A DNA stretch of 39,039 nucleotides from Bacteroidales bacterium (GTDB taxonomy: Bacteria > Bacteroidota > Bacteroidia > Bacteroidales > UBA932), in assembly GCA_028691975.1 (NCBI GenBank), contig JAQUYF010000014.1, positions 1-39,039 on the forward strand, in the 5' to 3' direction. Each line of letters opens with the position of its first letter. Positions within the stretch are counted from its first letter, which is position 1. The notes beneath the pieces were generated by a model. That model was given only the letters and a program-made list of their open reading frames with translations, had not been told where the DNA came from and did no database searches. Below, one piece after another: positions 1 through 29,675 of the stretch. Made by a program: the position numbers and the translations under genes.

Positions 1-142
1 GCATTTTCTTTAAATAATCAGTAGCATTTGTCGAATCTGTCAATGCTTCCACTACGTCAACTACAGAGAAATACCACTGTTGTTCTTCTTCATTCCATGC
101 GGAACGAATTTTTTTATCTTGAAAAAGTTTGATGTTGTTCAT
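1..142 (-). CDS. BRO-N / phage antirepressor-like protein, N-terminal part only
   Basis: Only the first 47 codons lie in the window; the gene runs off the left edge. The visible start reads MNNIKLFQDKKIRSAW, followed by a WYFSVVDVVEALT segment. This matches the start of the BRO-N domain found in phage antirepressors and DinD-like proteins, where the phrase resembles 'VRSVWnee..WYFSvvDVv..LT'. BRO-N is generally a DNA-binding domain in phage and mobile-element regulators. The ATG lies 2 nt beyond the TAA of the cas12a gene (TAA-TT-ATG), so the two are very probably co-transcribed and translationally coupled. No Shine-Dalgarno is visible. I cannot see the C-terminal domain, so whether it is an antirepressor, a DinD-type protein or a Cas12a-associated regulator is open. 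Confidence 0.75.
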   Translation of the reverse strand, partial: MNNIKLFQDKKIRSAWNEEEQQWYFSVVDVVEALTDSTNATDYLKKM

Positions 143-144
143 AA

Positions 145-3100
145 TTAGTGATTGTTATAAGGTTTTTGTTGTGCAAACTGCAGCCATTCCTTATTCGTTA
201 TGGCAAGTGTTATCTTTCTCACATCTTCCGCCTTCTTTATTTGTTCAATTACCCATAGCCCTTTCCGAGCAATATTATATGCACCATTTGCATCGGCATT
301 TTTCGGCAAAGTATCAGGGCACTGGCGGCTATCATAAAATTCACCTTTTTCATTTGCCACAGGAGAAACCAAATAATCGGTGTCAGTGCCTGTAATGCTG
401 TTGCGCATTTGCAGCGTAATTTTCAGCAGATGTAGCAAGCCTTCCCAAAACGGTTTGCCTGTTTGTGTCAGAATTTTTGCTTTTAAATCTCCGGAATAAT
501 CATTATTAAAGAACTTTTTAAATTCTTCGGTCAAATTTACTTCCCTGTTATCCCACTGATTGTTTTTTTCGGGATTACGGAACGTTTCTATACGGTTGCC
601 GTAGGTGCAAAGTGTCCATTTAGTGCGCGTACCTTCGGCTTTAGCGGTAAATTTGTTGTAATCGAAAGCAAATTCAAACCAATCTTTGTCGGCATTGTAT
701 TTTATACTGTTGAATTTTTCAAAAAAGGCTTTTGCCTTGTCTTCGTTTTCGTAACAAGTGTAGAACAAATCTACAAATCCGGTTGTTGGGTCCATTTTGC
801 TGGTATTCCATGCCGGAATGTAAAATAGGAAACCGCTTTGCTTGTCCAACTTTTGGAAACTCTCGAATTTGTTGGTGAGTTGGTAAGCGTGCAAAAGTCC
901 GCCTTCGGAATCAGCATCAACTTTCTTATCAACCAAATAATTCAGCTTGTCAATCAATTTATGTCCAAATTGTTGATAAACGGATTTTTCTACCTTTTGC
1001 CGACCACGTATAAATCCGGGATTCAAATCTTCCAACACCACAATGGCATTGTATTGCACCATTAATTGTGTGATTTTGTGAATTACCTGACTTAAATAAC
1101 CTTCTTTCAATTCTTTGATATTTTCAATGGTTTGCCAACTCTCTCGGGCTTTCTCACGTTCTTTTTCTTTCACGTCAAGCAAATCATGATAGTTGGTTTT
1201 ATAGGTGTTACCATTGTATTCATTCACAATCTCATTAAGCGAAAACTGTTTTTTGATATTGCCGTTCAAATCAATCAACGTAAGGTAAAGCAAATGCCTT
1301 TCGCCGCGGTCGATGCCGATAATGTGTGTGGCGTTGCTCTCTTTGAGAAATGTATTCACCTTTTCGTTGATATCGTTTATGCCTTCTGCCTTAAAATTCA
1401 TAGTTATTGGCACATGAAACTGAAATTTGTCAACCGTATAGCGACGGTCTTTGATAATGGGATAGTCAAATTTATCCTTTAACTTATCGTAATGGTGTCC
1501 TTTTTGCATGACTTCATCACTCCAACCGATAGACTTTTTGCGATAAAAGACTTTCGCCCGACCATTGAGTTTATAAACTACATTTGCCAAATTTTGTTCG
1601 TCAAACAGCATTTTCCAATATAGTGTGTGCATATTGGGTGTGCCTTTGCTGAAAGGTGAAAAATCCTTGTTATAGATTTGAAAAAGATAGAGCTTGCCTT
1701 CATCTACAAGTTGATTAATGTAGGATTCAGAAACTTTGCAGAAACTGATTTTATAGCCTTGCTGCTCCACTTCACGATAAAACCCGCTTAAATCTTCATA
1801 ACTGTTTGTATTTGAAAATTTGAATCCGAAATTTTTCCAATCTTCATGTTTGTTAATAGAACTTTTAAAGAAATCTATCAATTTATGGCAATCATCAATA
1901 TTAAAAGTTGCGCCTTTTTTATGCGTTTCATTGGCATAATTATCCTGTATATCTTTGCTTGGAGCAAATTCATCAATACGCGATTTTGAGAAAAATACTT
2001 TTGGCAACATTTTATTTGCGCCGGGCAACAATTTATAATCCATTTTTTCGTAACATTCGCCATCGTTCTTTATATTCTCCGGTTTAAAGATTTTGTTGTA
2101 CTTCTTGTTCATTATGCCCAAGTAATACAATCCGTTTTTGCGAAGAATGACGCTTGCATTGTCGGATTCTTTATTGACATCCCAACCGTCGAGTAAGGTG
2201 GAGTTCTCAAAATTAAGTTTTATCTTCTCGTCGGAATATGGCTTGCGTGTAGCATAGTTGCGCACTTTATTATAAAGGGGTGTTATGCTGTCCAAAATTT
2301 CTACAATCGTAGAGAATTCGCCGTAAAAACGCTCGTCCTTGTCGGATTCGTCGCCGTTTCCCAATAACGGTTTAACAAAACGTTGCAGGTTTTTCAAAGC
2401 ATCAAGCAAATCTTTGACTTTAGCAATATTGACTTTGTCCTGCGAGAGATTCTTATTTTGAGGATAAGATGTATTCAGTAAATCTTTTACCTCGGCATAC
2501 GATTTCTCAATTTTGTCGAGGATATTGCATTTCTGTTTCGTTTCCTTATCGGTCAGTTCCATTCGCTCAAAATAATCCTGCACGCATTCCTCCTTTTGGA
2601 CGGCTTTCAAACAATCGTTAATATACCCGATAGAAATGCTATCGAAAGATTTCAAATATTTGTTTTTACGTTCTTCATATTTCTCCGCTTTTTCGTTTTT
2701 CTTTTGAGGATTATTGTTTACAAAATCCGCCTCAATAGCTTTCGTTATTATGTTCCAATCCCCAAATAGTTGTTGCGATATGTTGGTGAGCGATAAATCG
2801 TTACGAAGGTAGATTTTGCTTAAATCATATTCTTTCAAATTAAGCAATAGATTTTTCAGCGAATGTTCGCCACTTAGAACTTTTTCGTTTATTTCTTGAT
2901 AACATTTTTCAATGTTTTCCAATACCTCATTATCATTATTAAATTCTTCCGGCAGCCACGAAATAGCGTTGCGGTCGCTCAAAATCTGCTTAAATAATGG
3001 TTTAAACTGCAAGCGTTGGCTCCTATCGGTTTGCTGTTGATTGTAAAGATTGATGTATTCGTTCAATCCCTGAATTTTAGGCTTGCCCTGCTCTTCTGCC

Positions 3101-3853
3101 CTGCCTCCTATGACTGCATTGTAAACATCTATCTGCATTTGAGTCAATACTTCGGAATAATAATTCAACTTAAACATATCGGTAATTTCGTTCACGTTTA
3201 AATATTCCGACATTTCATCATAGAGCTTTGTAAAATTATTTTTAACGTCAGTTGCCGCCACTTTCTCAAAAGTCGATATGTTATCAATAAATTTGGGCAA
3301 GTTTTCGTGAATCAAACGATATGCAATAGCCGTCGATTTTGTCTCATCTGAATACATATTTTGGCGATTTTTATGAAAACCGGTGAAATAGGTTGTAAAT
3401 TGTTCAAACTCTTTTATCAAAGACTTCGTCTGTCACAAAATCCAACAAATCTTCCTTAATAAGTTCCTTTTGGTCAATACGTTTAAAGCATTCATCTTCC
3501 TTTAATTGTTTAACTATCTGTTTCCTCAGCGTTGTCTGTATTTTTTCAAAAGTCTTTTTTTGAGATTCTTCAAGCTTTCCCATTTTATAATAAAGGCTGT
3601 ACTCCGTCAACGAATCAGCTTTTCCATCATCTTCAAGTTTCAACTTAAAATCTGATAGAGCTCTTTCAATATAAGCTTTGTGATATTCGTCAATAATTTT
3701 TTTAACTTCATTGTAACTCTCTGCTCGATGTTCATCTTGCGTAAGTAACTCATTTTGTTGGATTTTCTCCAGCGTTTTTCCGACGGGCCTCAACTCAAAA
3801 CGCAGTGTTTTACTCAATTGATAGAGGTTTTTGAATTCGTTTAATGTTTCCAT
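145..3853 (-). pseudogene. cas12a: Cas12a (Cpf1) type V-A CRISPR effector, interrupted by one frameshift
   Basis: Two overlapping frames (down to 3404, then from about 3420 to 145) together give a full-length Cas12a of about 1235 residues, within the usual 1200-1300. The N-terminus has the family signature YQLSKTLRFELRPVGKTLE. After correction, RuvC-I Asp is about residue 848 (GIDRGERH), RuvC-II Glu about 941 (VLEDLN) and RuvC-III Asp about 1187 (NADANGAYNIA). The Nuc-domain Arg (ETFRN) and the crRNA-processing His and Lys (FHVPITMNFK) are also present. The ATG at 3853 (METLNEF) aligns with known N-termini; an in-frame ATG at 3886 would add 11 residues. The family cuts DNA guided by crRNA. 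The break needs removal of one base near 3412-3421 and nothing else looks damaged. It may be a recent mutation or a sequencing error. No cas4, cas1, cas2 or array is seen. By eye the region is more AT-rich than its neighbours. Confidence 0.93.
3410..3421 (-). other. Frameshift site in cas12a
   Basis: Read on the minus strand, the first frame runs DFVTDEVFDKRV and stops at TGA. The frame shifted by one base reads LIKEFEQFTTYFTGF, which matches the Cas12a segment seen in relatives as 'LvnSFngFTTaFTGF'. Deleting one T from the coding TTT run (plus-strand AAA at 3419-3421) gives EV-LIKEFEQF, the better match. Deleting one A from the coding AAAA run (plus-strand TTTT at 3412-3415) would also restore the frame. 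Both are homopolymers, typical places for indels or sequencing error. The second frame could in principle start at TTG 3420. Confidence 0.85.
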
Positions 3854-3982
3854 TTCGGTTAATAATTTAGTGTTGTTCAATAACATAGATATACTGGTAG
3901 TATTGCCTGGCTATGCAGGCTTCCGCACAAGGACTTATAAAGTTAAGAATTTATTTCGATGTATATCTGTTATCCGGTCGGA

Positions 3983-4017
3983 TTTGGATTCATCTTTATA
4001 AAGTTTTTGTACCTTTG
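3983..4017 (+). promoter_or_regulatory. Bacteroidetes-type promoter for the DUF3784-PH-thioredoxin gene
   Basis: A -7 element TACCTTTG lies at 4010-4017 and matches the Bacteroidetes consensus TAnnTTTG. A TTTG at 3983-3986 is a possible -33 element, though the 23-nt spacing is slightly long. Transcription would start near 4024, about 16 nt before the ATG at 4040. This argues against the in-frame upstream ATG at 3959, which would precede the promoter. Confidence 0.55.
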
Positions 4018-4039
4018 GAGGGAAAAAATTATTACTATC

Positions 4040-5218
4040 ATGAATACTGCATATATCATTATCGGGCTGGTGTTTATCGTCCTCGGGTTCCTTGTTAAAA
4101 GATTTCCCGTCCTGATCGCAGGATACAATACGATGTCTAAAGAACAGAAAGAAAATGTTGATGTCAACGGATTAGGACGTTATATGCGCTGGTGTCTAAT
4201 ATGTCTCGGATGTGTGGTAATCGCCCTGTCTATCATCTTCACACTTTTGCATTTAACTGCATATTTGAGCCTGGTGATAATTGTTTTATTGTTTGTAGTG
4301 TTGCCTTTCGTAGTCGTTGGAGCAACCAAATACGACCACAACGAAAAGAGACGTCCCCGTATAATATACGTAGCTTTCATCGTTATCTTCATTGTACTTG
4401 TTGTAAGCGGTTGTACATGGCTGTTAATATATGGCTCAAAACCCACCGTAGTAAGTGTCAATGACTCCGTCATCAGATTTGAAGGTATGGAAAGAAGTAC
4501 GTTGAAAGTGACTGCTATAGCATCAGTCGAACTCACTGATTCCATCCCTGCTATCAGGGGTAAAGTTAGGGGATTTGATTATATGAGTGTCAGAAAAGGC
4601 AATTTCCGACTTAATGATTATGGCATCTGCAAGATGTACACCCATTCCTCAAAGGGGCCATATATCCTGATCAAAACGATCGACGACAAAACATTCATCA
4701 TCAATTACAAAGAACCGGAAAAAGTGAAAGAGTTGTACGACAGAATTTGCGCAGCGCAGACAAGAGGCTATATTGTGAAAATCGGTGACATGGTGCCGAA
4801 CTTTGACATAGTAACTCCGGATGGCGTTAAAGTCAACATTGACTCTCTGAGGGGCAAGGTTGTGATGCTCCAGTTTACCGCATCATGGTGTGTAGTCTGC
4901 CGCAGAGAGATGCCTCACATCGAAAGCGATATTTGGCTGAAGCTAAAGGATAATTCTCAATTTGCCCTGTATGGTATAGACTTAAAGGAGACTCCGGAAG
5001 AGATAGCCGCTTTTACTGCCGCGATCCCTGTCACCTACCCTGTCGCACTTGATCCTGAAGGAGCAATTTTCGGGCTCTTCTGTGAAGCAGAAGCCGGTGT
5101 AACGAGAAACATTATACTGGACCGCACAGGTAAAATCATTAAACTCACAAGGCTCTATGACGAGGCCGAATTCTCTTCTATGGTAGAACTCATCAATCGG
5201 GAACTTGCTAAGGAATAA
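4040..5218 (+). CDS. DUF3784 - PH-like - TlpA-type thioredoxin fusion, membrane anchored
   Basis: A 392-residue protein in three parts. Residues 1 to about 135 hold several membrane segments and the DUF3784 hallmark GYNTMSKEQKENVDVNGL. After another membrane helix ending in GCTWLLIYGS comes a region of about 115 residues resembling bacterial PH domains (ending KEPEKVKELYDRI). The last 150 residues are a TlpA/AhpC-type thioredoxin fold with the active site WCVVC (Cys285 and Cys288). Such domains act as thiol-disulfide reductants in the cell envelope. DUF3784 with a PH-like domain is familiar in this phylum; I do not know the added thioredoxin domain as a standard arrangement. I chose ATG 4040 because it begins a clean membrane helix and follows the promoter at 3983-4017. 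Substrate unknown. The gene ends 3 bases before the convergent beta-barrel gene. Confidence 0.8.
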   Translation: MNTAYIIIGLVFIVLGFLVKRFPVLIAGYNTMSKEQKENVDVNGLGRYMRWCLICLGCVVIALSIIFTLLHLTAYLSLVIIVLLFVVLPFVVVGATKYDHNEKRRPRIIYVAFIVIFIVLVVSGCTWLLIYGSKPTVVSVNDSVIRFEGMERSTLKVTAIASVELTDSIPAIRGKVRGFDYMSVRKGNFRLNDYGICKMYTHSSKGPYILIKTIDDKTFIINYKEPEKVKELYDRICAAQTRGYIVKIGDMVPNFDIVTPDGVKVNIDSLRGKVVMLQFTASWCVVCRREMPHIESDIWLKLKDNSQFALYGIDLKETPEEIAAFTAAIPVTYPVALDPEGAIFGLFCEAEAGVTRNIILDRTGKIIKLTRLYDEAEFSSMVELINRELAKE

Positions 5219-5220
5219 TT

Positions 5221-6474
5221 TTACTGAATATAAAATCTTACGCCGGCCAGAAGTTTGACATCCAAGGGGTTGCTGCTGCGAATTGTAGTGACCTTGCACT
5301 CATTCGGAAAGTAGTACAGACCTCCTGCCTCAAGGTATATGCCGGCAAGTTTGTCAAAGTTGTACTGAATACCAACAGCCCCGGACAGCGACCAGAAGAT
5401 CGAATTGATGGCCTGCATCTTTTTGCCGTCAAGCTCAGCGTATATACATTTTTCGCCCATACCGCCGGCGTTAAGATAGGCATTGAAGCTCCCTCCCTGA
5501 TAGAAATCCCAGCTTGCACTCAACGGAATGCCGATGAAGTGCAATTTCTGCACACTTGTATTCGCAGAAGAGGTCAGGTCTGAAACCAGTAGAGAATAAG
5601 TCACACCCGTACCTGCGGAAATACGTTTTGTCAAATATTTGTTAACGGAAAGTCCTACACTGATCGGCAGATGGTGTGTGTAAGAATATTTATCAAGATT
5701 GTTAAAAAATGTACCATTGCTGTATGACAGATAGTTGACACCCTCTATTGATGTGTTTCCAATAATCTTGTCAATAGGTACCGGATCTGAATATTGATTG
5801 TTAATAATGGCACTTGCGGCATCACCTTGTACCAGATTATCGGAATAATAGCCCCCGCCCAGATTGTGATTCCAACTGTCAGCATTTGCTCCCGATATCA
5901 TTCCTCTCAGACCCACAGCCCACTTGCCGGAAGTTTTACTCCTCATTTTGGCATCTTCAGCATCCTCTTTTGCAATTGCCTGTGCCAACAGTTCACTCCA
6001 ATTTGTAACGGTGTCACTATCGTCGGACTTCTTCTCAACAACTGTAATCTTCTCTTTATATTCGGCATCAATCTCACTCTTTTGCTGCTCCTTCCTATTA
6101 GACTCATTCACAGAATTAACCTCATCGTACACAGGCACTTTAGCAATGGCAGGCCTCTTTTCCATCGCAGCAAGAGATTGAGGAGCCGGAACCGACATAT
6201 CTACATTTACATTAGCATAGTTCTGCACAATGGTAACAGTAGGCTCATTTACAGCCCCCTGACGGGAAATAGATCTCGTAGCAAAAAACACAACTGCTAT
6301 CGCGGCCGCCACGGAAGGGACAAGCCAGCTTACGCGAACCAGCCTCTTTCTGCGAAGAGCAGAGCGATCCATATCCTGCCGCAGGCGTTCCCATCCGTTG
6401 TCCGGAAGCGACTCACCGTAGTCACCAAGCGACTGTTTCAAGGCATCAACCCATTGTTCGTCTTTTCTTTTCAT
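5221..6474 (-). CDS. Sigma-factor partner protein: one membrane helix plus C-terminal outer-membrane beta-barrel-like domain
   Basis: A 417-residue protein encoded directly after the ECF sigma gene. Residues 1 to about 45 are charged and would be cytoplasmic (DNGWERLRQDMDRSALRRKRL). A membrane helix follows (SWLVPSVAAAIAVVFFATRS), then a low-complexity linker rich in Lys, Glu and Ser. The last 230 residues show alternating aromatic and Gly-rich strands (VGLRGMISG, ISAGTGVTYS, AGVRFYIQ), like PorT/OmpA-type barrels. The helix and position suggest an anti-sigma role for the N-terminus; the barrel-like domain suggests an outer-membrane or periplasmic sensing part. ATG 6474 is preferred over a TTG at 6492; it lies 14 nt after the sigma stop codon. 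The arrangement of sigma gene plus helix-barrel protein recurs in Bacteroidales, but the signal is unknown. Confidence 0.7.
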   Translation of the reverse strand: MKRKDEQWVDALKQSLGDYGESLPDNGWERLRQDMDRSALRRKRLVRVSWLVPSVAAAIAVVFFATRSISRQGAVNEPTVTIVQNYANVNVDMSVPAPQSLAAMEKRPAIAKVPVYDEVNSVNESNRKEQQKSEIDAEYKEKITVVEKKSDDSDTVTNWSELLAQAIAKEDAEDAKMRSKTSGKWAVGLRGMISGANADSWNHNLGGGYYSDNLVQGDAASAIINNQYSDPVPIDKIIGNTSIEGVNYLSYSNGTFFNNLDKYSYTHHLPISVGLSVNKYLTKRISAGTGVTYSLLVSDLTSSANTSVQKLHFIGIPLSASWDFYQGGSFNAYLNAGGMGEKCIYAELDGKKMQAINSIFWSLSGAVGIQYNFDKLAGIYLEAGGLYYFPNECKVTTIRSSNPLDVKLLAGVRFYIQ

Positions 6475-25717: not shown

Positions 25718-25725
25718 CAAAGGTA
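25718..25725 (-). promoter_or_regulatory. -7 element for the membrane protein-patatin pair
   Basis: TACCTTTG on the minus strand, a full match to TAnnTTTG, lies 21 nt before the ATG at 25696 in the gap after the PP2C gene. A TTG some 23 nt upstream inside the PP2C end may be the -33 element. It separates the kinase/DarT-vWA/PP2C cassette from the next two genes. Confidence 0.55.
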
Positions 25726-25745: not shown

Positions 25746-26543
25746 CTACAATCTGGCAAGAGAATAATCATCAACGGAAAGCAAGTTGTCCCGAACCTTA
25801 AGACTCAAGTGCCTGGTAAAGTCACGCTTGCAAAGCATCGTAGTAAATAGACGTTGGAGAATATCAGGCTCAAACCGTAACTTTCTAAGTTTCATGGCAT
25901 TTTTGATATACTGGGAATTACGGCTGCGACTTTCTAAGGCAAGACGCAATTCATCTGCAAAGCGCTCACGATAGGACAACTCGTACATCATCATAATATA
26001 ATGGGCCAGGGCATCACTGGTGACAAACACCGCAGAATACTCATCAGTATGAAACAGACCGCTGCTAAAGCCTTCCCGCAAGAGTTCATCCTTATCATTA
26101 ATCAGATGCGGAGGCTTGTCAAAGTCGGCAAGCGACGTGAAAGAGTGTTCTAAAGAGTGCCTCTCCCAATTGTAATGAAACACTACACTGTCGCCATACG
26201 CCATCCAACGACACTCTTCAGCCGACAATCGCCACACGGCAGCTAACGTTGCATAAGAACCCTCATCATAAAATTTACTCAGCACCATCCCGCCGGCCGC
26301 TCTTGCCATAACCTCACAAGTGCTGTAAAAACTTTCCCAAATGGAACCGAGCCATCTATCCAACTCTTCAAAAAAGACTATGGGAGACAAAGGCAGGTTA
26401 TCCACTAAATAGCGAGACCACTGCTCTGCATAAAGGCCTGCACCCCCTGCCCCGTCAGATACTGCAGCCATATCCGGAAGGGCAATAGCTGCATCTTCAT
26501 TGACAGATCCCTCATTAATCTTCTCGATAGAGACGGGATTCAT
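25746..26543 (-). CDS. PP2C-type Ser/Thr protein phosphatase, third gene of the cassette
   Basis: A 265-residue protein with PP2C motifs in order: NEDA (residues 15-18), metal-binding Asp30 in VSDGAGG, GSYATLAAVW, the YGDSVVF strand, TSDAL and a final DDYS (usual DDxT). The metal-binding aspartates therefore appear intact, so an active Mn/Mg-dependent phosphatase is likely; residues 195-250 are an insertion or extension of unknown role. No signal peptide or membrane helix. Its ATG lies 1 nt after the TAA of the DarT-vWA gene, which implies coupled translation. In kinase/vWA/PP2C gene triads the phosphatase is thought to reverse the kinase's phosphorylation; here the likely targets are the neighbouring kinase or DarT-vWA protein (inference). 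Confidence 0.85.
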   Translation of the reverse strand: MNPVSIEKINEGSVNEDAAIALPDMAAVSDGAGGAGLYAEQWSRYLVDNLPLSPIVFFEELDRWLGSIWESFYSTCEVMARAAGGMVLSKFYDEGSYATLAAVWRLSAEECRWMAYGDSVVFHYNWERHSLEHSFTSLADFDKPPHLINDKDELLREGFSSGLFHTDEYSAVFVTSDALAHYIMMMYELSYRERFADELRLALESRSRNSQYIKNAMKLRKLRFEPDILQRLFTTMLCKRDFTRHLSLKVRDNLLSVDDYSLARL

Positions 26544-26544
26544 C

Positions 26545-27993
26545 TTACAGGCTTTGACCGATATTAGTCGGAGTACCGATATCCATAAGCTGAATCAAAG
26601 TGGAAGCATCCACATTGACAGCCATAGCTACATGACGCTTATCACTCTTGAAGATATCCTGTCGAACCTTAGAGATGTCGGTGTTGTAACGAAGAGGCAA
26701 TAAACTTGACATGGCAAACAGAGCCTTGCCGTGTTCACTTTTGCGCAGCTCATCAGTCGTAACAGGAAAAACAATCTTATTCTCAACCTTGGAATTGAGA
26801 TGTATATTGAACAGCAGCACATTGCCGTCATTGGTAAACATGGATTTCAGCTCATTTGCTATCTGAAGCATATTAGCCTTGGATCGACCATTGAACTCTC
26901 CATCGGTAATATTGATAATTGTAGGAGGATAACAGTCTTTGTCATGATGCTCTAACATCCATTCAGAGAGAATATCGCGTGCCATGGCAAAAGCCTTGTG
27001 CAGATGAGTCCATTTCCCGTCATATCGCGCCTCAAGCCACTGAACCTTCTCAACTTCCTTCTCTTCAATGCCCTTTCTTGTTCGCTTCTCCTCCCGCACG
27101 AGAACCCTCTTGAACGGATTATCCTTCAACTCCTGAGGCGTCACAAACCCTCTACCCTCCAATTCTCCGCTCCATCCGCTGTAGGCCTCTGTACCGTATC
27201 CGATAAGGGCTATATCGTAATAATGTCGCACCTCACTGGCTTTGACACATCTAAGTACAAGTTCATTGATCTGATTGTTAACAACCTGAGCCACAGCCTC
27301 CGCCAGGGTCATCTTCTCACCATTGAACGTTGTCATATACTTCATTGACATAGACTGGTCCACAAGAAAGATAAAAGCAGTCGGAGTGTTACGCGTAATC
27401 TGGGAAGTATAAGGCTCTTTAGATTTGAATTCCAATGGGTTAGTGGGAATAGGAATGCCGAAATTGGCAATATTGGTAATGTACTTCAGCGGAATAAAGT
27501 CGTTGACAAGCACCTCTGCCTGATAATAATCTTCCTCATCTTCATCCACTCCGTAAACCGTAGGCTTAGTCACCGATTGAAAATGTATCCTGACAAAATC
27601 ATCCAGCGTATTGCCTATCTGTGCATTTCTGTCTGCACAATCACGGTCTGAATACATTGTAGAACTCTCAAAGATAACAGCCGGATCAATCTCAAGCACT
27701 ACCGGATTGGAAATGCGCATATCGAGCATGGATTGAAACATCATCGGGTGGTTGGCTGAAAAACCGAGTCTCACACGGTACTGCAGGCTTTTCTGATTGT
27801 CCAAAATCCGTGTATCACGGCTTCTGACAGACTTTTTGATTGTGATTCCGCGATCTTCACACGCTTTCCATGAATAAAGACCACCGCACTTGATAATAGA
27901 ATCGAGATTGTCACGATCTGTAAAGTGATACAATTTCGTAATATTGTATCTGTCCAGAATATGCTTGTACGAGCGCCAATTTGTTCTTTTCAT
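26545..27993 (-). CDS. DarT-like (DUF4433) ADP-ribosyltransferase domain fused to a von Willebrand A domain
   Basis: A 482-residue cytoplasmic protein. Residues about 15-190 resemble DarT/DUF4433: LYHFTDRDNLDSIIKCGGL (NAD-pocket His), RSRDTRIL, VRLGFSANHPMMFQSM, NPVVLEID and YQAEVLVNDFIPLKYI, where Glu160 matches the catalytic Glu. DarT toxins ADP-ribosylate thymidine in single-stranded DNA. Residues about 205-400 are a vWA domain with MIDAS motif DQSMS (Asp212, Ser214, Ser216) and TDGEF (Asp364). A basic stretch REEKRTRKGIEEKEVEKV lies between strands. vWA domains mediate metal-dependent protein contacts. The gene lies 90 nt after the kinase gene and 1 nt before the PP2C gene, with no promoter seen in the 90-nt gap. 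No DarG macrodomain antitoxin is in the window. I do not know this fusion as a described system. Confidence 0.82.
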   Translation of the reverse strand: MKRTNWRSYKHILDRYNITKLYHFTDRDNLDSIIKCGGLYSWKACEDRGITIKKSVRSRDTRILDNQKSLQYRVRLGFSANHPMMFQSMLDMRISNPVVLEIDPAVIFESSTMYSDRDCADRNAQIGNTLDDFVRIHFQSVTKPTVYGVDEDEEDYYQAEVLVNDFIPLKYITNIANFGIPIPTNPLEFKSKEPYTSQITRNTPTAFIFLVDQSMSMKYMTTFNGEKMTLAEAVAQVVNNQINELVLRCVKASEVRHYYDIALIGYGTEAYSGWSGELEGRGFVTPQELKDNPFKRVLVREEKRTRKGIEEKEVEKVQWLEARYDGKWTHLHKAFAMARDILSEWMLEHHDKDCYPPTIINITDGEFNGRSKANMLQIANELKSMFTNDGNVLLFNIHLNSKVENKIVFPVTTDELRKSEHGKALFAMSSLLPLRYNTDISKVRQDIFKSDKRHVAMAVNVDASTLIQLMDIGTPTNIGQSL

Positions 27994-28083
27994 ACGTCTA
28001 TAATTGTTTTTTATTTGTGTCTAAACATCAATTATATCCGTTTTCATAGGTAGAAGATATTGTTAATTAGTTAAATAGAGTTA

Positions 28084-29619
28084 TCATTCAATCAGCTTGG
28101 AGTGCAGCGACAGATCCAGCAACTTTATGAACTTCCCCTTAGTACCTTTAGGAACATATATCGATTGTAACTGACCGCATCCGTAAAATGAGTTAGACTC
28201 CACCGTGTTCAGGGATTCAGGCAAAACGATGCTCTGAAGAGCCGAACAGCCTCTAAATGCAGCTGATCCGATAGAAACCACACCTTCAGGTATTTCCATA
28301 TTAACAAGCGAAGTACAGTCCGAAAAAGTACCAAAGCTGATGGAAGTCACACTCCCCGGCATCTCAACAGTATGCAAAGAGGTGCACCATCTGAAAGCTC
28401 CGTCTTTGATAATTTTGACCGAATGGGGAATGACCGCACACTCGAGGGCCGAACATCCGCTAAAAGCAAACTCACCCAACGCCACAACCGAATCCGGAAT
28501 CGACAGATGTTGCAGAGACTTCTTATTGGAAAAAGCGGAATCACAAATCACCAGAGTCTCCTCAAGTATCGAGTAGTCGATCAACTTATCGGGTCCTTCA
28601 ATAAGAATTTTTCCATCTGAAGAATAAACAGCGCCGTACTCATCTCTGCAGGCACTGCTCCGCAACTCACTGTCAGCCTTGGTTGTGTCAACCTCCACCA
28701 CTTTATTTTGCGGCGGAGCTATCAAAAACCTTACTGCCCAATCCGGCGAAAGATAACCGACAGAGAGAACCGTGACGAACATGGAATAGAGCCGCAACAA
28801 CTCAGGATCTGAAAGCAGGTCATGCAAAGCGCCAAAGACGGCACTTCTGCTCAAGTCTCTATAATCAATCGATGAAAACAGAAGCCTCTCCTGCGCACCA
28901 AACTGTTCATAGAGCCGTGTATCATCGGATATTGCTTTCAGCGAAAGGGCCATGCTCGCAAGAGCAAAATCATCTATCCTCTCATCAAACATGTTTTCAT
29001 CTCTTAAGGGATGTCTGAAATCGGGACTTCCTATTTCACCTGATTTCATTCCTTTCATATCGGGGACAAACATCCCGTCATAATCCACAAGAACCAGAGA
29101 ACCATCTTCCTGTACCATAACATTGTCAGGCTTGATATCGCCATGCGCAAAAGGCTGGCCGATAAGCCATGATGCCATACTGCAAAAATCGAAAGCAAGC
29201 TTCTTAAGTCGAAACTGATCTGTAATGTTGCGGCTGACAAAACGATCCAGATTGCAGCCGTCAACCCACCTCATCAAAACAATGGGGAATTCCCTTTCTT
29301 TACATGATGCTGTATCTACATACAACTCCTTTTCAAGGTAGAGAATACGCACAAAATGAGGAGAATCAACCGACTTTAGATAATTTGCAACGGCTCTGTA
29401 ACGCTCTTCACGCTGGGACTGATCCTTGAGAAAACATCTGACAGCATAGAACTTTCCATCATCCACATCCTCCATCTTGAATACAACAGCAAAATTGCCG
29501 CTGGTCAAAATAGGCTGACCATCTTCGTCCAATACCGGACGAAGGCGAGTTAACTTGCTGAAATTCTGCTCAGGAGAAAGAATTGAGTATAAATATTCGG
29601 AAATTAACGGATAGTTCAT
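28084..29619 (-). CDS. Ser/Thr protein kinase-like protein with BspA-type leucine-rich repeats
   Basis: A 511-residue protein. The kinase domain covers about residues 20-300. The glycine loop is degenerate (LTSGNFAVVF), the usual beta-3 Lys position reads AVRCF with Arg, the catalytic loop is intact (HGDIKPDN, Asp161 and the metal-binding Asn), and the DFG site reads VDYDGMFVP. This AVRCF/DYDG form occurs in a group of bacterial kinases. Residues about 345-490 contain five or so BspA/LRR_5 repeats (phrases GEFAFSGCSALECAVIP, DGAFRWCTSLHTVEMP, SAAFRGCSALQSIVLP). LRR_5 repeats mediate protein binding and could sense a trigger. No signal peptide or membrane helix. It is the first gene of the cassette, with a strong promoter at 29645-29675. 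Confidence 0.85.
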   Translation of the reverse strand: MNYPLISEYLYSILSPEQNFSKLTRLRPVLDEDGQPILTSGNFAVVFKMEDVDDGKFYAVRCFLKDQSQREERYRAVANYLKSVDSPHFVRILYLEKELYVDTASCKEREFPIVLMRWVDGCNLDRFVSRNITDQFRLKKLAFDFCSMASWLIGQPFAHGDIKPDNVMVQEDGSLVLVDYDGMFVPDMKGMKSGEIGSPDFRHPLRDENMFDERIDDFALASMALSLKAISDDTRLYEQFGAQERLLFSSIDYRDLSRSAVFGALHDLLSDPELLRLYSMFVTVLSVGYLSPDWAVRFLIAPPQNKVVEVDTTKADSELRSSACRDEYGAVYSSDGKILIEGPDKLIDYSILEETLVICDSAFSNKKSLQHLSIPDSVVALGEFAFSGCSALECAVIPHSVKIIKDGAFRWCTSLHTVEMPGSVTSISFGTFSDCTSLVNMEIPEGVVSIGSAAFRGCSALQSIVLPESLNTVESNSFYGCGQLQSIYVPKGTKGKFIKLLDLSLHSKLIE

Positions 29620-29644
29620 TTTAGTCCACTTTGGCTTCAGCGGC

Positions 29645-29675
29645 CAAAGTTAGGGAAATTCTATGAAAAACCAAA
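29645..29675 (-). promoter_or_regulatory. Strong Bacteroidetes-type promoter of the kinase/DarT-vWA/PP2C cassette
   Basis: On the minus strand, TTTG (complement at 29672-29675), exactly 19 nt, then TAACTTTG (complement at 29645-29652). Both elements match the consensus. The ATG at 29619 is 25 nt further on. It lies between the end of nqrF and the kinase start, so the cassette need not depend on the nqr promoter. Confidence 0.8.

What the first reader, a model, noticed from the sequence alone, without database searches (positions are those of the whole stretch)
25746..29675. Kinase-LRR / DarT-vWA / PP2C cassette: possible undescribed phosphorylation-gated ADP-ribosylation system
Three minus-strand genes form a compact unit with a consensus promoter in front (29645-29675), a 90-nt gap and a 1-nt gap inside, and another promoter right after (25718-25725). 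Kinase, vWA and PP2C together resemble TerY-P triads, which comparative genomics links to stress and phage defence. Here the vWA protein also carries a DarT/DUF4433 domain with the expected Glu. The simplest model is that phosphorylation, set by the kinase and PP2C, holds back or releases a DNA- or protein-modifying ADP-ribosyltransferase, with the leucine-rich repeats as sensor. The system idea is inference; the domains are read from sequence.
Basis: partly seen in the sequence, partly recalled or inferred. Interest (0 to 1): 0.92.

Follow-up and report, generated by a model that had tools for sequence, protein, structure and literature searches.

The report
Phosphorylation-switched ADP-ribosylation cassette, antidote lost
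A set of bacterial genes that looks like a phage alarm joins a phosphorylation switch to an enzyme that tags nucleic acid with ADP-ribose; related gut bacteria carry the same set with what looks like an antidote gene, which this copy lacks while its tagging enzyme has changed.

Summary
In detail: kinase-LRR (28084-29619), DarT-vWA fusion (26545-27993) and PP2C (25746-26543) are intact genes matching PADLOC's STK_OB, TerY and PP2C, i.e. a TerY-P triad with DarT fused to TerY. A scan of genome contigs gave 26 further full-length fusions, all Bacteroidia; PP2C follows in 26 of 26, a kinase was recognised in 22 of 26. DUF6939 folds like the NADAR antitoxin of DarT1 and was in 0 of 7 TerY loci without DarT. 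The family looks like a DarT1/NADAR-like toxin-antidote pair built into a TerY-P switch with exchangeable sensors, probably anti-phage. The window copy is the odd one out: no DUF6939 found locally or in its 87%-complete genome, the fastest-changing DarT of the 27 fusions relative to its TerY, and Asp where 26 of 26 relatives have the Asn aligned with DarT1's guanine contact. Its ADP-ribosylation is probably lost or altered. Structure prediction of the fusion failed. New variant of known kinds.

The parts
28084..29619 (-). protein kinase with C-terminal BspA-type leucine-rich repeats (511 aa), presumed sensor; HGDIKPDN and DYDG intact, the VAIK-type Lys is Arg61
   Evidence: Pkinase 6.5e-12, LRR_5 1.2e-34; PADLOC STK_OB 2.7e-55 over residues 1-267 of the protein, no OB part; Arg at this site in 3 of 29 readable kinases of the family, the window included
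26545..27993 (-). DarT-TerY fusion (482 aa): N-terminal DarT-type ADP-ribosyltransferase (about 1-185), C-terminal TerY vWA with DxSxS (about 195-475)
   Evidence: PF14487 9e-28; TerY 6.5e-51 and DarT 1.3e-15 in PADLOC; PDB 8baq E. coli C7 DarT1 1.8e-5 single sequence, 1.5e-9 with profile; D212, S214, S216, D364, E160 same in 26 of 26 relatives
27640..27642 (-). codon of Asp118, where 26 of 26 fused relatives have Asn; aligns with guanine-coordinating Asn104 of E. coli C7 DarT1
   Evidence: residue role from PMC11543638 passages; the equivalence is inferred
25746..26543 (-). PP2C-like phosphatase (265 aa)
   Evidence: PADLOC PP2C 2e-9; 0 of 64 near-invariant family positions changed; conserved Asp residues
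27994..28083 (-). 90-nt gap where 24 of 26 relatives carry DUF6939 just before the fusion; no trace of DUF6939 seen
29645..29675 (-). Bacteroidetes-type promoter-like match TTTG-N19-TAACTTTG, 25 nt before the kinase start codon
   Evidence: not above chance in number

Best explanation
The cassette belongs to a Bacteroidales family of phosphorylation-switched ADP-ribosylation systems, most likely anti-phage. In the family, one or more kinases with exchangeable C-terminal repeat or ligand-binding domains (sensor) and a PP2C phosphatase set the phosphorylation state of a TerY vWA protein that is physically fused to a DarT1-like ADP-ribosyltransferase (effector); the switch releases DarT on infection so that it tags guanine in DNA (or RNA), and the NADAR-like DUF6939 removes tags in uninfected cells. 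Shown: the genes, their domains, their conserved linkage, the NADAR-like fold of the DUF6939 model, and the linkage of DUF6939 to DarT rather than to TerY. Inferred: the substrate, the direction of the switch, the phage trigger, the antidote role. In the window, DUF6939 is missing, the DarT domain has diverged fast and the residue that should contact the guanine is Asp; I infer that guanine ADP-ribosylation is lost, weak or redirected in this copy, while TerY, PP2C and kinase are kept as a switch that may now act through something else.
For: TerY-P identity. 26 further full-length fusions; PP2C next in 26 of 26; DUF6939 in 25 of 26 (L046 is cut 66 nt upstream; L040 has it after PP2C; L037 has a shortened copy next to the fusion and a 190-aa copy further upstream); kinase in 22 of 26, two or more in 8. 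DUF6939: AlphaFold model pLDDT 90.6; best PDB match 8bat Geobacter lovleyi NADAR, Foldseek probability 1.00, E 1.6e-3, TM 0.54, no other match above probability 0.02; E60 and K67 27 of 27 with the 7-residue spacing of NADAR E88/K95, K88 27 of 27, D152 26 of 27 (NADAR roles from PMC11543638 passages). TerY loci without DarT: 0 of 7 examined have DUF6939, 7 of 7 have the kinase. DarT-DUF6939 also occurs without TerY, including beside ZorA/ZorB-like genes, and one locus fuses DarT to a PP2C next to DUF6939 and TerY (L020). AbiH, SIR2_2, SLFN_AlbA_2 as neighbours in single examples. Window: DarT part differs at 15 of 77 near-invariant columns, TerY part at 6 of 111 (Fisher p 0.004, smallest of 27 rows, uncorrected); DarT/TerY identity ratio 0.867, lowest of 27, next 0.952; DarT end branch 0.99 against at most 0.65 in the other fusions, TerY end branch 0.45; PP2C 0 of 64. 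Of DarTs whose gene lies by a DUF6939 and whose site is readable, 34 of 34 have Asn; Asp occurs only in the window and L004/L110, and DUF6939 was found in neither genome. TerY-P reported active against T7-like phages (PMC7699616 passage).
Against: No experiment. The own genome is 86.94% complete and that of L004 65%, so DUF6939 could lie in missing parts; the first own-genome search had a silent control, only one search had positive ones (4 of 4). The mapping of residue 118 to Asn104 rests on a profile alignment with a one-residue numbering offset; the equivalent of C7 Arg52 stayed unresolved. DUF6939's Foldseek E-value is above 0.001 and the Pfam NADAR-DarT1 model matches 4 of 6 DUF6939 proteins scanned, all below cut-off. 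L048 has no kinase within the 8 kb held on each side. Asn without DUF6939 also occurs: L130, L132, L134 (which has an ADP-ribosylglycohydrolase instead), the more distant L112 and L136, and L111, whose genome (G122, 92% complete) shows no DUF6939. L103 has TerY and a diverged DarT-like gene without DUF6939 on its 5.2-kb contig, though its genome has one elsewhere. L050 departs from the family more than the window in absolute count (25 of 191 against 21 of 188), though evenly in both parts and with DUF6939 kept. The window's F24, D65, M85 and E160 are intact, so activity is not excluded.
Confidence: 0.5

Rival explanations
1. The window copy is a fully active, phosphorylation-gated DarT system that no longer needs a dedicated antidote, because the kinase/PP2C switch alone keeps it off.
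For: All three frames open; Glu160 and other aligned DarT1 active-site positions kept; PP2C and TerY conserved.
Against: Asn-to-Asp at the base-contact site, where Asn104Ala inactivates C7 DarT1; DarT part specifically fast-evolving; 25 of 25 other fusions with enough flank keep DUF6939.
Confidence: 0.17
2. The window DarT has changed substrate (another base, RNA or protein), so that a guanine-specific hydrolase became useless and was lost.
For: Asp at the site that contacts the base (Asn in DarT1, His in DarT2; PMC11543638 passages); the only other Asp-bearing DarT found, L004/L110 in the same genus, is also without a detected DUF6939; frame intact.
Against: Two cases only; loss of activity explains the same facts; DarTs with Asn and no DUF6939 exist; no substrate evidence.
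Confidence: 0.17
3. Ter-type stress or metal response rather than phage defence: the triad senses stress and DarT slows growth by marking host DNA.
For: TerY-P triads are also tied to tellurite resistance and hypothesised metal sensing (PMC11090510 passage); vWA DxSxS conserved; the window cassette sits between an Nqr-type operon (by eye) and a small membrane-protein gene followed by a patatin gene, not in a visible defence island.
Against: Some relatives carry AbiH, SIR2_2 or SLFN_AlbA_2 genes around the cassette; patchy distribution (TerY match in 11 of 393 genomes of the order). Other ter genes were not searched for.
Confidence: 0.15
4. An ordinary TerY-P triad in which the DarT domain serves only as a nucleic-acid or NAD binding scaffold.
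For: TerY with kinase but without DarT exists in 7 loci examined, so DarT is dispensable to the switch.
Against: Catalytic Glu in 26 of 26 other fusions and tight linkage to a NADAR-like gene.
Confidence: 0.08

Closest known systems
TerY-P (TerY-phosphorylation triad; PADLOC STK_OB + TerY + PP2C)
   Same: Same three families in one gene row, all three PADLOC models matched; described as acting against T7-like phages (PMC7699616 passage).
   Different: Kinase tail is LRR (in relatives also Sel1 or FGE-sulfatase) instead of OB fold or zinc ribbon (PMC11090510 passages); TerY carries an N-terminal DarT; relatives have DUF6939.
DarT1-NADAR (DarTG1) toxin-antitoxin
   Same: DarT domain closest in the PDB by sequence to E. 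coli C7 DarT1 (8baq); partner in relatives folds like G. lovleyi NADAR (8bat).
   Different: DarT is fused to a vWA protein beside kinase and phosphatase genes; DUF6939 is a separate Pfam family, below the NADAR-DarT1 cut-off; the window has no partner and lacks the base-contact Asn.
KKP (kinase-kinase-phosphatase) module, PMC11341870
   Same: Phosphorylation-switch module with defence against phages (search listing and start of the abstract only).
   Different: No vWA, ADP-ribosyltransferase or hydrolase in the part of the abstract seen.
Zorya (ZorAB motor)
   Same: The DarT-DUF6939 pair sits beside ZorA/ZorB-like genes in L106 and L139 (ZorA-like also in L002), and DarT with ADP-ribosylglycohydrolase beside such genes in L134.
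   Different: No such motor genes among the window cassette's three genes; the ZorAB matches are weak (E 2.8e-6 to 1.5e-13).

Membership tests
TerY-P triad | TerY vWA + PP2C + Ser/Thr kinase in one operon | tested here: met
   PADLOC models TerY 6.5e-51, PP2C 2e-9, STK_OB 2.7e-55 on three adjacent genes; co-transcription not tested
TerY-P triad | kinase C-terminal OB fold or zinc ribbon (variants described in PMC11090510) | tested here: not met
   STK_OB matched only to residue 267; C-terminus is LRR_5. The tail already differs between described variants, so I read this as a variant
TerY-P triad | phosphorylation controlled by kinase and PP2C; anti-phage activity | not testable with these tools
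   needs experiment
DarT1-NADAR (DarTG1) | DarT1-type ART with catalytic Glu | tested here: met
   Glu160 aligned with E152 of C7 DarT1; Glu in 26 of 26 relatives
DarT1-NADAR (DarTG1) | guanine-coordinating Asn (N104 in C7 DarT1) | tested here: not met
   Asp118 in the window, Asn in 26 of 26 other fusions; so the window is not filed as a DarT1 enzyme, its relatives may be
DarT1-NADAR (DarTG1) | NADAR antitoxin in the operon | tested here: not met
   no DUF6939 in the window or found in the 86.94%-complete genome; classic NADAR families were not searched genome-wide. Met in 25 of 26 relatives if DUF6939 counts as NADAR-like
DarTG2 (DarT2 with macrodomain DarG) | macrodomain DarG next to DarT | tested here: not met
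   the two genes next to the fusion are the PP2C and the kinase; neither matches a macrodomain in Pfam
NADAR superfamily (for DUF6939) | YbiA/NADAR fold | tested here: met
   8bat NADAR the only confident Foldseek match (probability 1.00, E 1.6e-3, TM 0.54); one fold search of one model
NADAR superfamily (for DUF6939) | catalytic Glu and Lys (E88, K95 in C7 NADAR) | tested here: inconclusive
   invariant E60 and K67 with the same spacing, not checked residue by residue on superposed structures

The most novel reading that the evidence does not exclude
DarT-DUF6939 is a portable 'mark and erase' effector pair that bacteria plug into different alarm front-ends: TerY-P kinase switches with interchangeable LRR, Sel1 or FGE sensors, and ZorAB-like motors. 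TerY-P would then gain a defined output, reversible nucleic-acid ADP-ribosylation gated by phosphorylation, and the window would be a natural case of a retargeted ADP-ribosyltransferase that dropped its antidote after the base-contact residue changed.
Probability: 0.15. Interest if true: 0.82.

Novelty: new variant of a known kind. Interest (0 to 1): 0.62.

Why it matters
TerY-P is reported to act against phages but, in the passages read, without an identified effector. These loci tie the triad physically to an ADP-ribosyltransferase and genetically to a NADAR-like gene, which makes the question 'what does the phosphorylation switch control' directly testable. They also give DUF6939, named in none of the held papers, a testable function, and point to lone DUF6939 genes on viral contigs as possible counter-defence.

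Tried and rejected
So there is no ART fold check by structure and no fold search of it.

Kinase Lys-to-Arg as a sign of death: rejected as weak, because 2 of 28 other readable kinases also have Arg there (L035, L045) and a Lys one strand earlier is kept in 29 of 29.

Empty site in the genus: of 40 genomes searched with the patatin neighbour, one has a good full-length relative (46%, L108), and no Nqr gene lies beside it in the 16 kb read, so nothing could be said.

Viral origin of the fusion: no relative in the phage collection or, by pattern scans, in viral contigs.

Rows dropped: G287, whose TerY matches are weak and lie in 1498- and 1583-aa frames, was not fetched; L103 was left out of the seven TerY-without-DarT loci because it has a DarT-like piece; L049 was left out of alignment A2 but counted; L058, L060 and one piece of L059 do not reach residue 118.

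Literature: TerY+PP2C+kinase+triad 1 paper; TerY, vWA and defence terms 22 and 50 papers, 20 listed each; DUF4433 with von Willebrand and kinase: 11,324 papers hold two terms, the 20 listed irrelevant by title; DUF4433+vWA 0; DUF6939 0; DarT+TerY 13, irrelevant by title. Papers were seen as listings or as found passages (PMC11543638, PMC11833690, PMC11125620, PMC7699616, PMC11090510, PMC9503650), none whole. The 2012 Ter paper of Anantharaman and colleagues and Gao 2020 were not read; they are known here through other papers' passages.

Two notebook entries carry slips: one search gives 17 DarT and 4 TerY deviations (correct: 15 and 6), and says all DarT+TerY loci but the window have DUF6939 (L103 is an exception).
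Full report
OBSERVATION. The three genes are present as described. PADLOC assigns STK_OB (2.7e-55), TerY (6.5e-51) and PP2C (2e-9) to the three proteins in order, so the set is a TerY-P triad by the models in use. Pfam adds Pkinase and LRR_5 on the first protein and DarT (9e-28) on residues 22-182 of the second; it barely sees the vWA part and does not see PP2C. The closest solved structure by sequence is E. coli C7 DarT1, 8baq (1.8e-5 single sequence; 1.5e-9 with a family profile). In the own genome (G000, 2.01 Mb, 106 contigs, 86.94% complete) no second DarT or fusion was found.

RELATIVES. Of 148 relatives searched with the fusion, 5 genomes matched including the own, and outside the own only through the DarT part. 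Of 393 genomes of the order, TerY matched in 11, some weakly; three outside the own carry the same fusion. The scan of genome contigs with the alignment of these four gave 32 loci: 26 full-length fusions (L029-L054) and 6 partial DarT matches (L055-L060). It works by short patterns, so 26 is a lower bound. L041, L047 and L054 have the contig lengths of the three found before, and are not counted twice. By record title the 26 are Bacteroidales or families of it (Prevotella, Porphyromonas somerae and uenonis, Parabacteroides, Bacteroides, Muribaculaceae, rumen and gut assemblies), except L040, titled only Bacteroidia. Of 398 genomes of the family (some searched before) 9 matched the fusion profile, only the own one over the full length. 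No relative of the fusion was found among phages or viral contigs; plasmids gave 10 records, none covering both parts.

ANATOMY OF THE FAMILY. PP2C is the next gene in 26 of 26. DUF6939 is in 25 of 26: just before the fusion in 24, after PP2C in L040; L046 is cut by the contig end 66 nt before the fusion. In L037 the copy next to the fusion is shortened (100 of 209 residues matched) and a 190-aa copy lies further upstream. Kinases were recognised in 22 of 26 loci (in L043 as a 74-aa piece at the contig end), two or more in 8; L030, L046 and L047 are cut by contig ends (L030 and L047 with LRR pieces there), L048 has none in the 8 kb held on each side. Among 30 kinases longer than 350 aa, the window's included, BLAST against three seed tails gave LRR 18, Sel1 5, both 3, FGE-sulfatase 2, none 2; ten relatives' kinases were checked in Pfam. 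Of nine neighbouring genes of relatives scanned in Pfam, six had a hit above cut-off: AbiH (L029), DUF1810 (L029), SIR2_2 (L037), SLFN_AlbA_2 (L035), DUF6602 (L038), DUF2971 (L050); two had none and one only a sub-threshold HEPN match.

DUF6939. Pfam PF22075 matches at 1.5e-62 to 9.4e-78 in six proteins scanned; PF22397 NADAR-DarT1 appears in four of the six, below its cut-off (14.1-17.9 bits against 27). The AlphaFold model (200 aa, 27 sequences, pLDDT 90.6) has one confident match in 350,542 PDB chains, 8bat Geobacter lovleyi NADAR (E 1.6e-3, probability 1.00, TM 0.54 and 0.50, rmsd 4.6, 18% identity); no other has probability above 0.02. E60, K67 and K88 are invariant in 27 of 27 and D152 in 26 of 27; E60 and K67 have the spacing of C7 NADAR E88 and K95, and K88 and D152 may correspond to K115 and D171, residues needed for antitoxin action there (PMC11543638, passages). 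The equivalence is inference. Specificity control: of 7 loci with TerY but no DarT (L019, L021, L022, L024, L027, L104, L105), 7 have the kinase and 0 have DUF6939. L103 is an exception to the pairing: TerY and a diverged DarT-like gene on a 5.2-kb contig without DUF6939, whose genome has a DUF6939 elsewhere. DarT-DUF6939 without TerY is found in L002, L055, L056, L057, L059, L106, L107, L131 and in the named P. distasonis record NZ_OY725823.1 (L139). L106 and L139 continue with ZorA-like and ZorB-like genes and L002 with a ZorA-like one (E 2e-7 to 1.5e-13); L134 has DarT, ZorA/B-like genes and an ADP_ribosyl_GH gene, without DUF6939. L020 carries a PP2C-DarT fusion, DUF6939, TerY alone and a second PP2C on a 4.3-kb contig, a second, differently built fusion of DarT to the same switch.

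THE WINDOW COPY. No DUF6939 is found in six frames of the window or in the genome by two profiles (with a silent control, where the profile found it in 4 of 4 other genomes). The 90-nt gap shows no remnant. Against 26 relatives the fusion departs at 21 of 188 near-invariant columns: 15 of 77 in the DarT part and 6 of 111 in the TerY part (Fisher p 0.004; smallest of 27 rows, not corrected); the DarT/TerY identity ratio is 0.867 against 0.952 or more in the other 26. L050 departs at more columns (25 of 191) but evenly (11 of 77 and 14 of 114). The window's PP2C departs at 0 of 64, its kinase at 6 of 83. In the DarT tree the window's end branch is 0.99, the longest among fusions (next L050, 0.65); in the TerY tree it is 0.45, like L040, L041, L050 and L052. 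The window lies with the fusions in the DarT tree, in a group of 27 rows (support 92/93) that also takes in L130 and leaves out L051, without firm inner order; loss of DUF6939 is the simplest reading.

Residue 118 is Asp in the window and Asn in 26 of 26 fusions. The profile alignment puts it on SEQRES residue 105 of 8baq, and the catalytic Glu on SEQRES 153, which equals the paper's numbering plus one, hence Asn104 (my count on the printed alignment). Asn104 coordinates the guanine and its alanine mutant is inactive and non-toxic (PMC11543638 passage). In the wider set, of DarTs lying by a DUF6939 with the site readable 34 of 34 have Asn; Asp occurs only in the window and in L004/L110, a different DarT protein from a genome of the same genus (65% complete) where DUF6939 was not found; three distant ones have Ser (L109, L135, L137). 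Asn without DUF6939 also occurs: L130, L132, L134, the distant L112 and L136, and L111, whose genome (92% complete) shows none. So the relation is one-way and rests on two Asp cases. Aligned equivalents of other DarT1 active-site residues are kept (F24, D65, M85, E160); that of Arg52 is unresolved.

MECHANISM. For the family: sensor kinase(s) and PP2C set the state of TerY; TerY carries DarT; DUF6939 erases. TerY-P is reported to act against T7-like phages (PMC7699616 passage) and is thought to be a phosphorylation switch (PMC11090510 passages). Gating of DarT by phosphorylation is inference from fusion and linkage. For the window: altered or lost transferase with the switch kept; I put lost or weak guanine activity first; retargeting and full activity come behind it at equal odds.

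KNOWN OR NEW. A defence finder using PADLOC's models would probably file this under TerY-P. What I did not find in print, in the searches listed, is the DarT-TerY fusion, DUF6939 as its partner, or DUF6939 at all. The library lacks most subscription journals, so a prior mention in comparative-genomics papers is quite possible. I rate it a new variant of known kinds.

Noticed in passing
window 145-3886: Cas12a (Cpf1)-type gene near the window edge, split over two minus-strand frames (1091 aa and 160 aa, overlapping at 3404-3420), in a stretch of lower GC (about 0.36 against 0.44). Described only.
   Followed up: partly
L142, L143, L144, L145 (viral contigs of 95-201 kb), each from 6001: Lone DUF6939 genes on large viral contigs without a DarT in the 12.5 kb held: candidates for phage-borne erasers of host ADP-ribosylation. 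L144 and L145 look alike. Two 735-kb uncultured phage records (LR756501.1, LR756503.1) also match at 30%.
   Followed up: partly
L141 4769-8953: Contig classed as viral with DarT, DUF6939 and two genes that look by eye like ZorA/ZorB, beside a gene that looks like a DNA methyltransferase; these neighbours were not scanned.
   Followed up: partly
L147 (NZ_CP104891.1) 4950-5504: DUF6939 gene, the second gene after an RHS-repeat protein on a 15-kb plasmid, the position of an immunity gene.
   Followed up: no
L138 2596-6748; L146 (NZ_CP091789.1) 1-5546: DUF6939 near ADP-ribosylglycohydrolase, Nudix and DUF1810-type genes, suggesting a wider ADP-ribose-processing set; no DarT was found in L138, and none is annotated in L146.
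   Followed up: partly
L029 10234-11454 and similar genes after PP2C in L035, L036, L038, L049, L053: A recurrent 406-425 aa gene after PP2C (similarity by eye); L029's copy has DUF1810 (6.8e-54) and an N-terminal 'VFGSN..G.H.GGA' stretch without a Pfam match.
   Followed up: no
L110 3745-5367 (G009, same genus): Another DarT-bearing protein (540 aa, DarT at the C-terminus) with Asp at the base-contact position and no DUF6939 found, beside unknown genes.
   Followed up: partly
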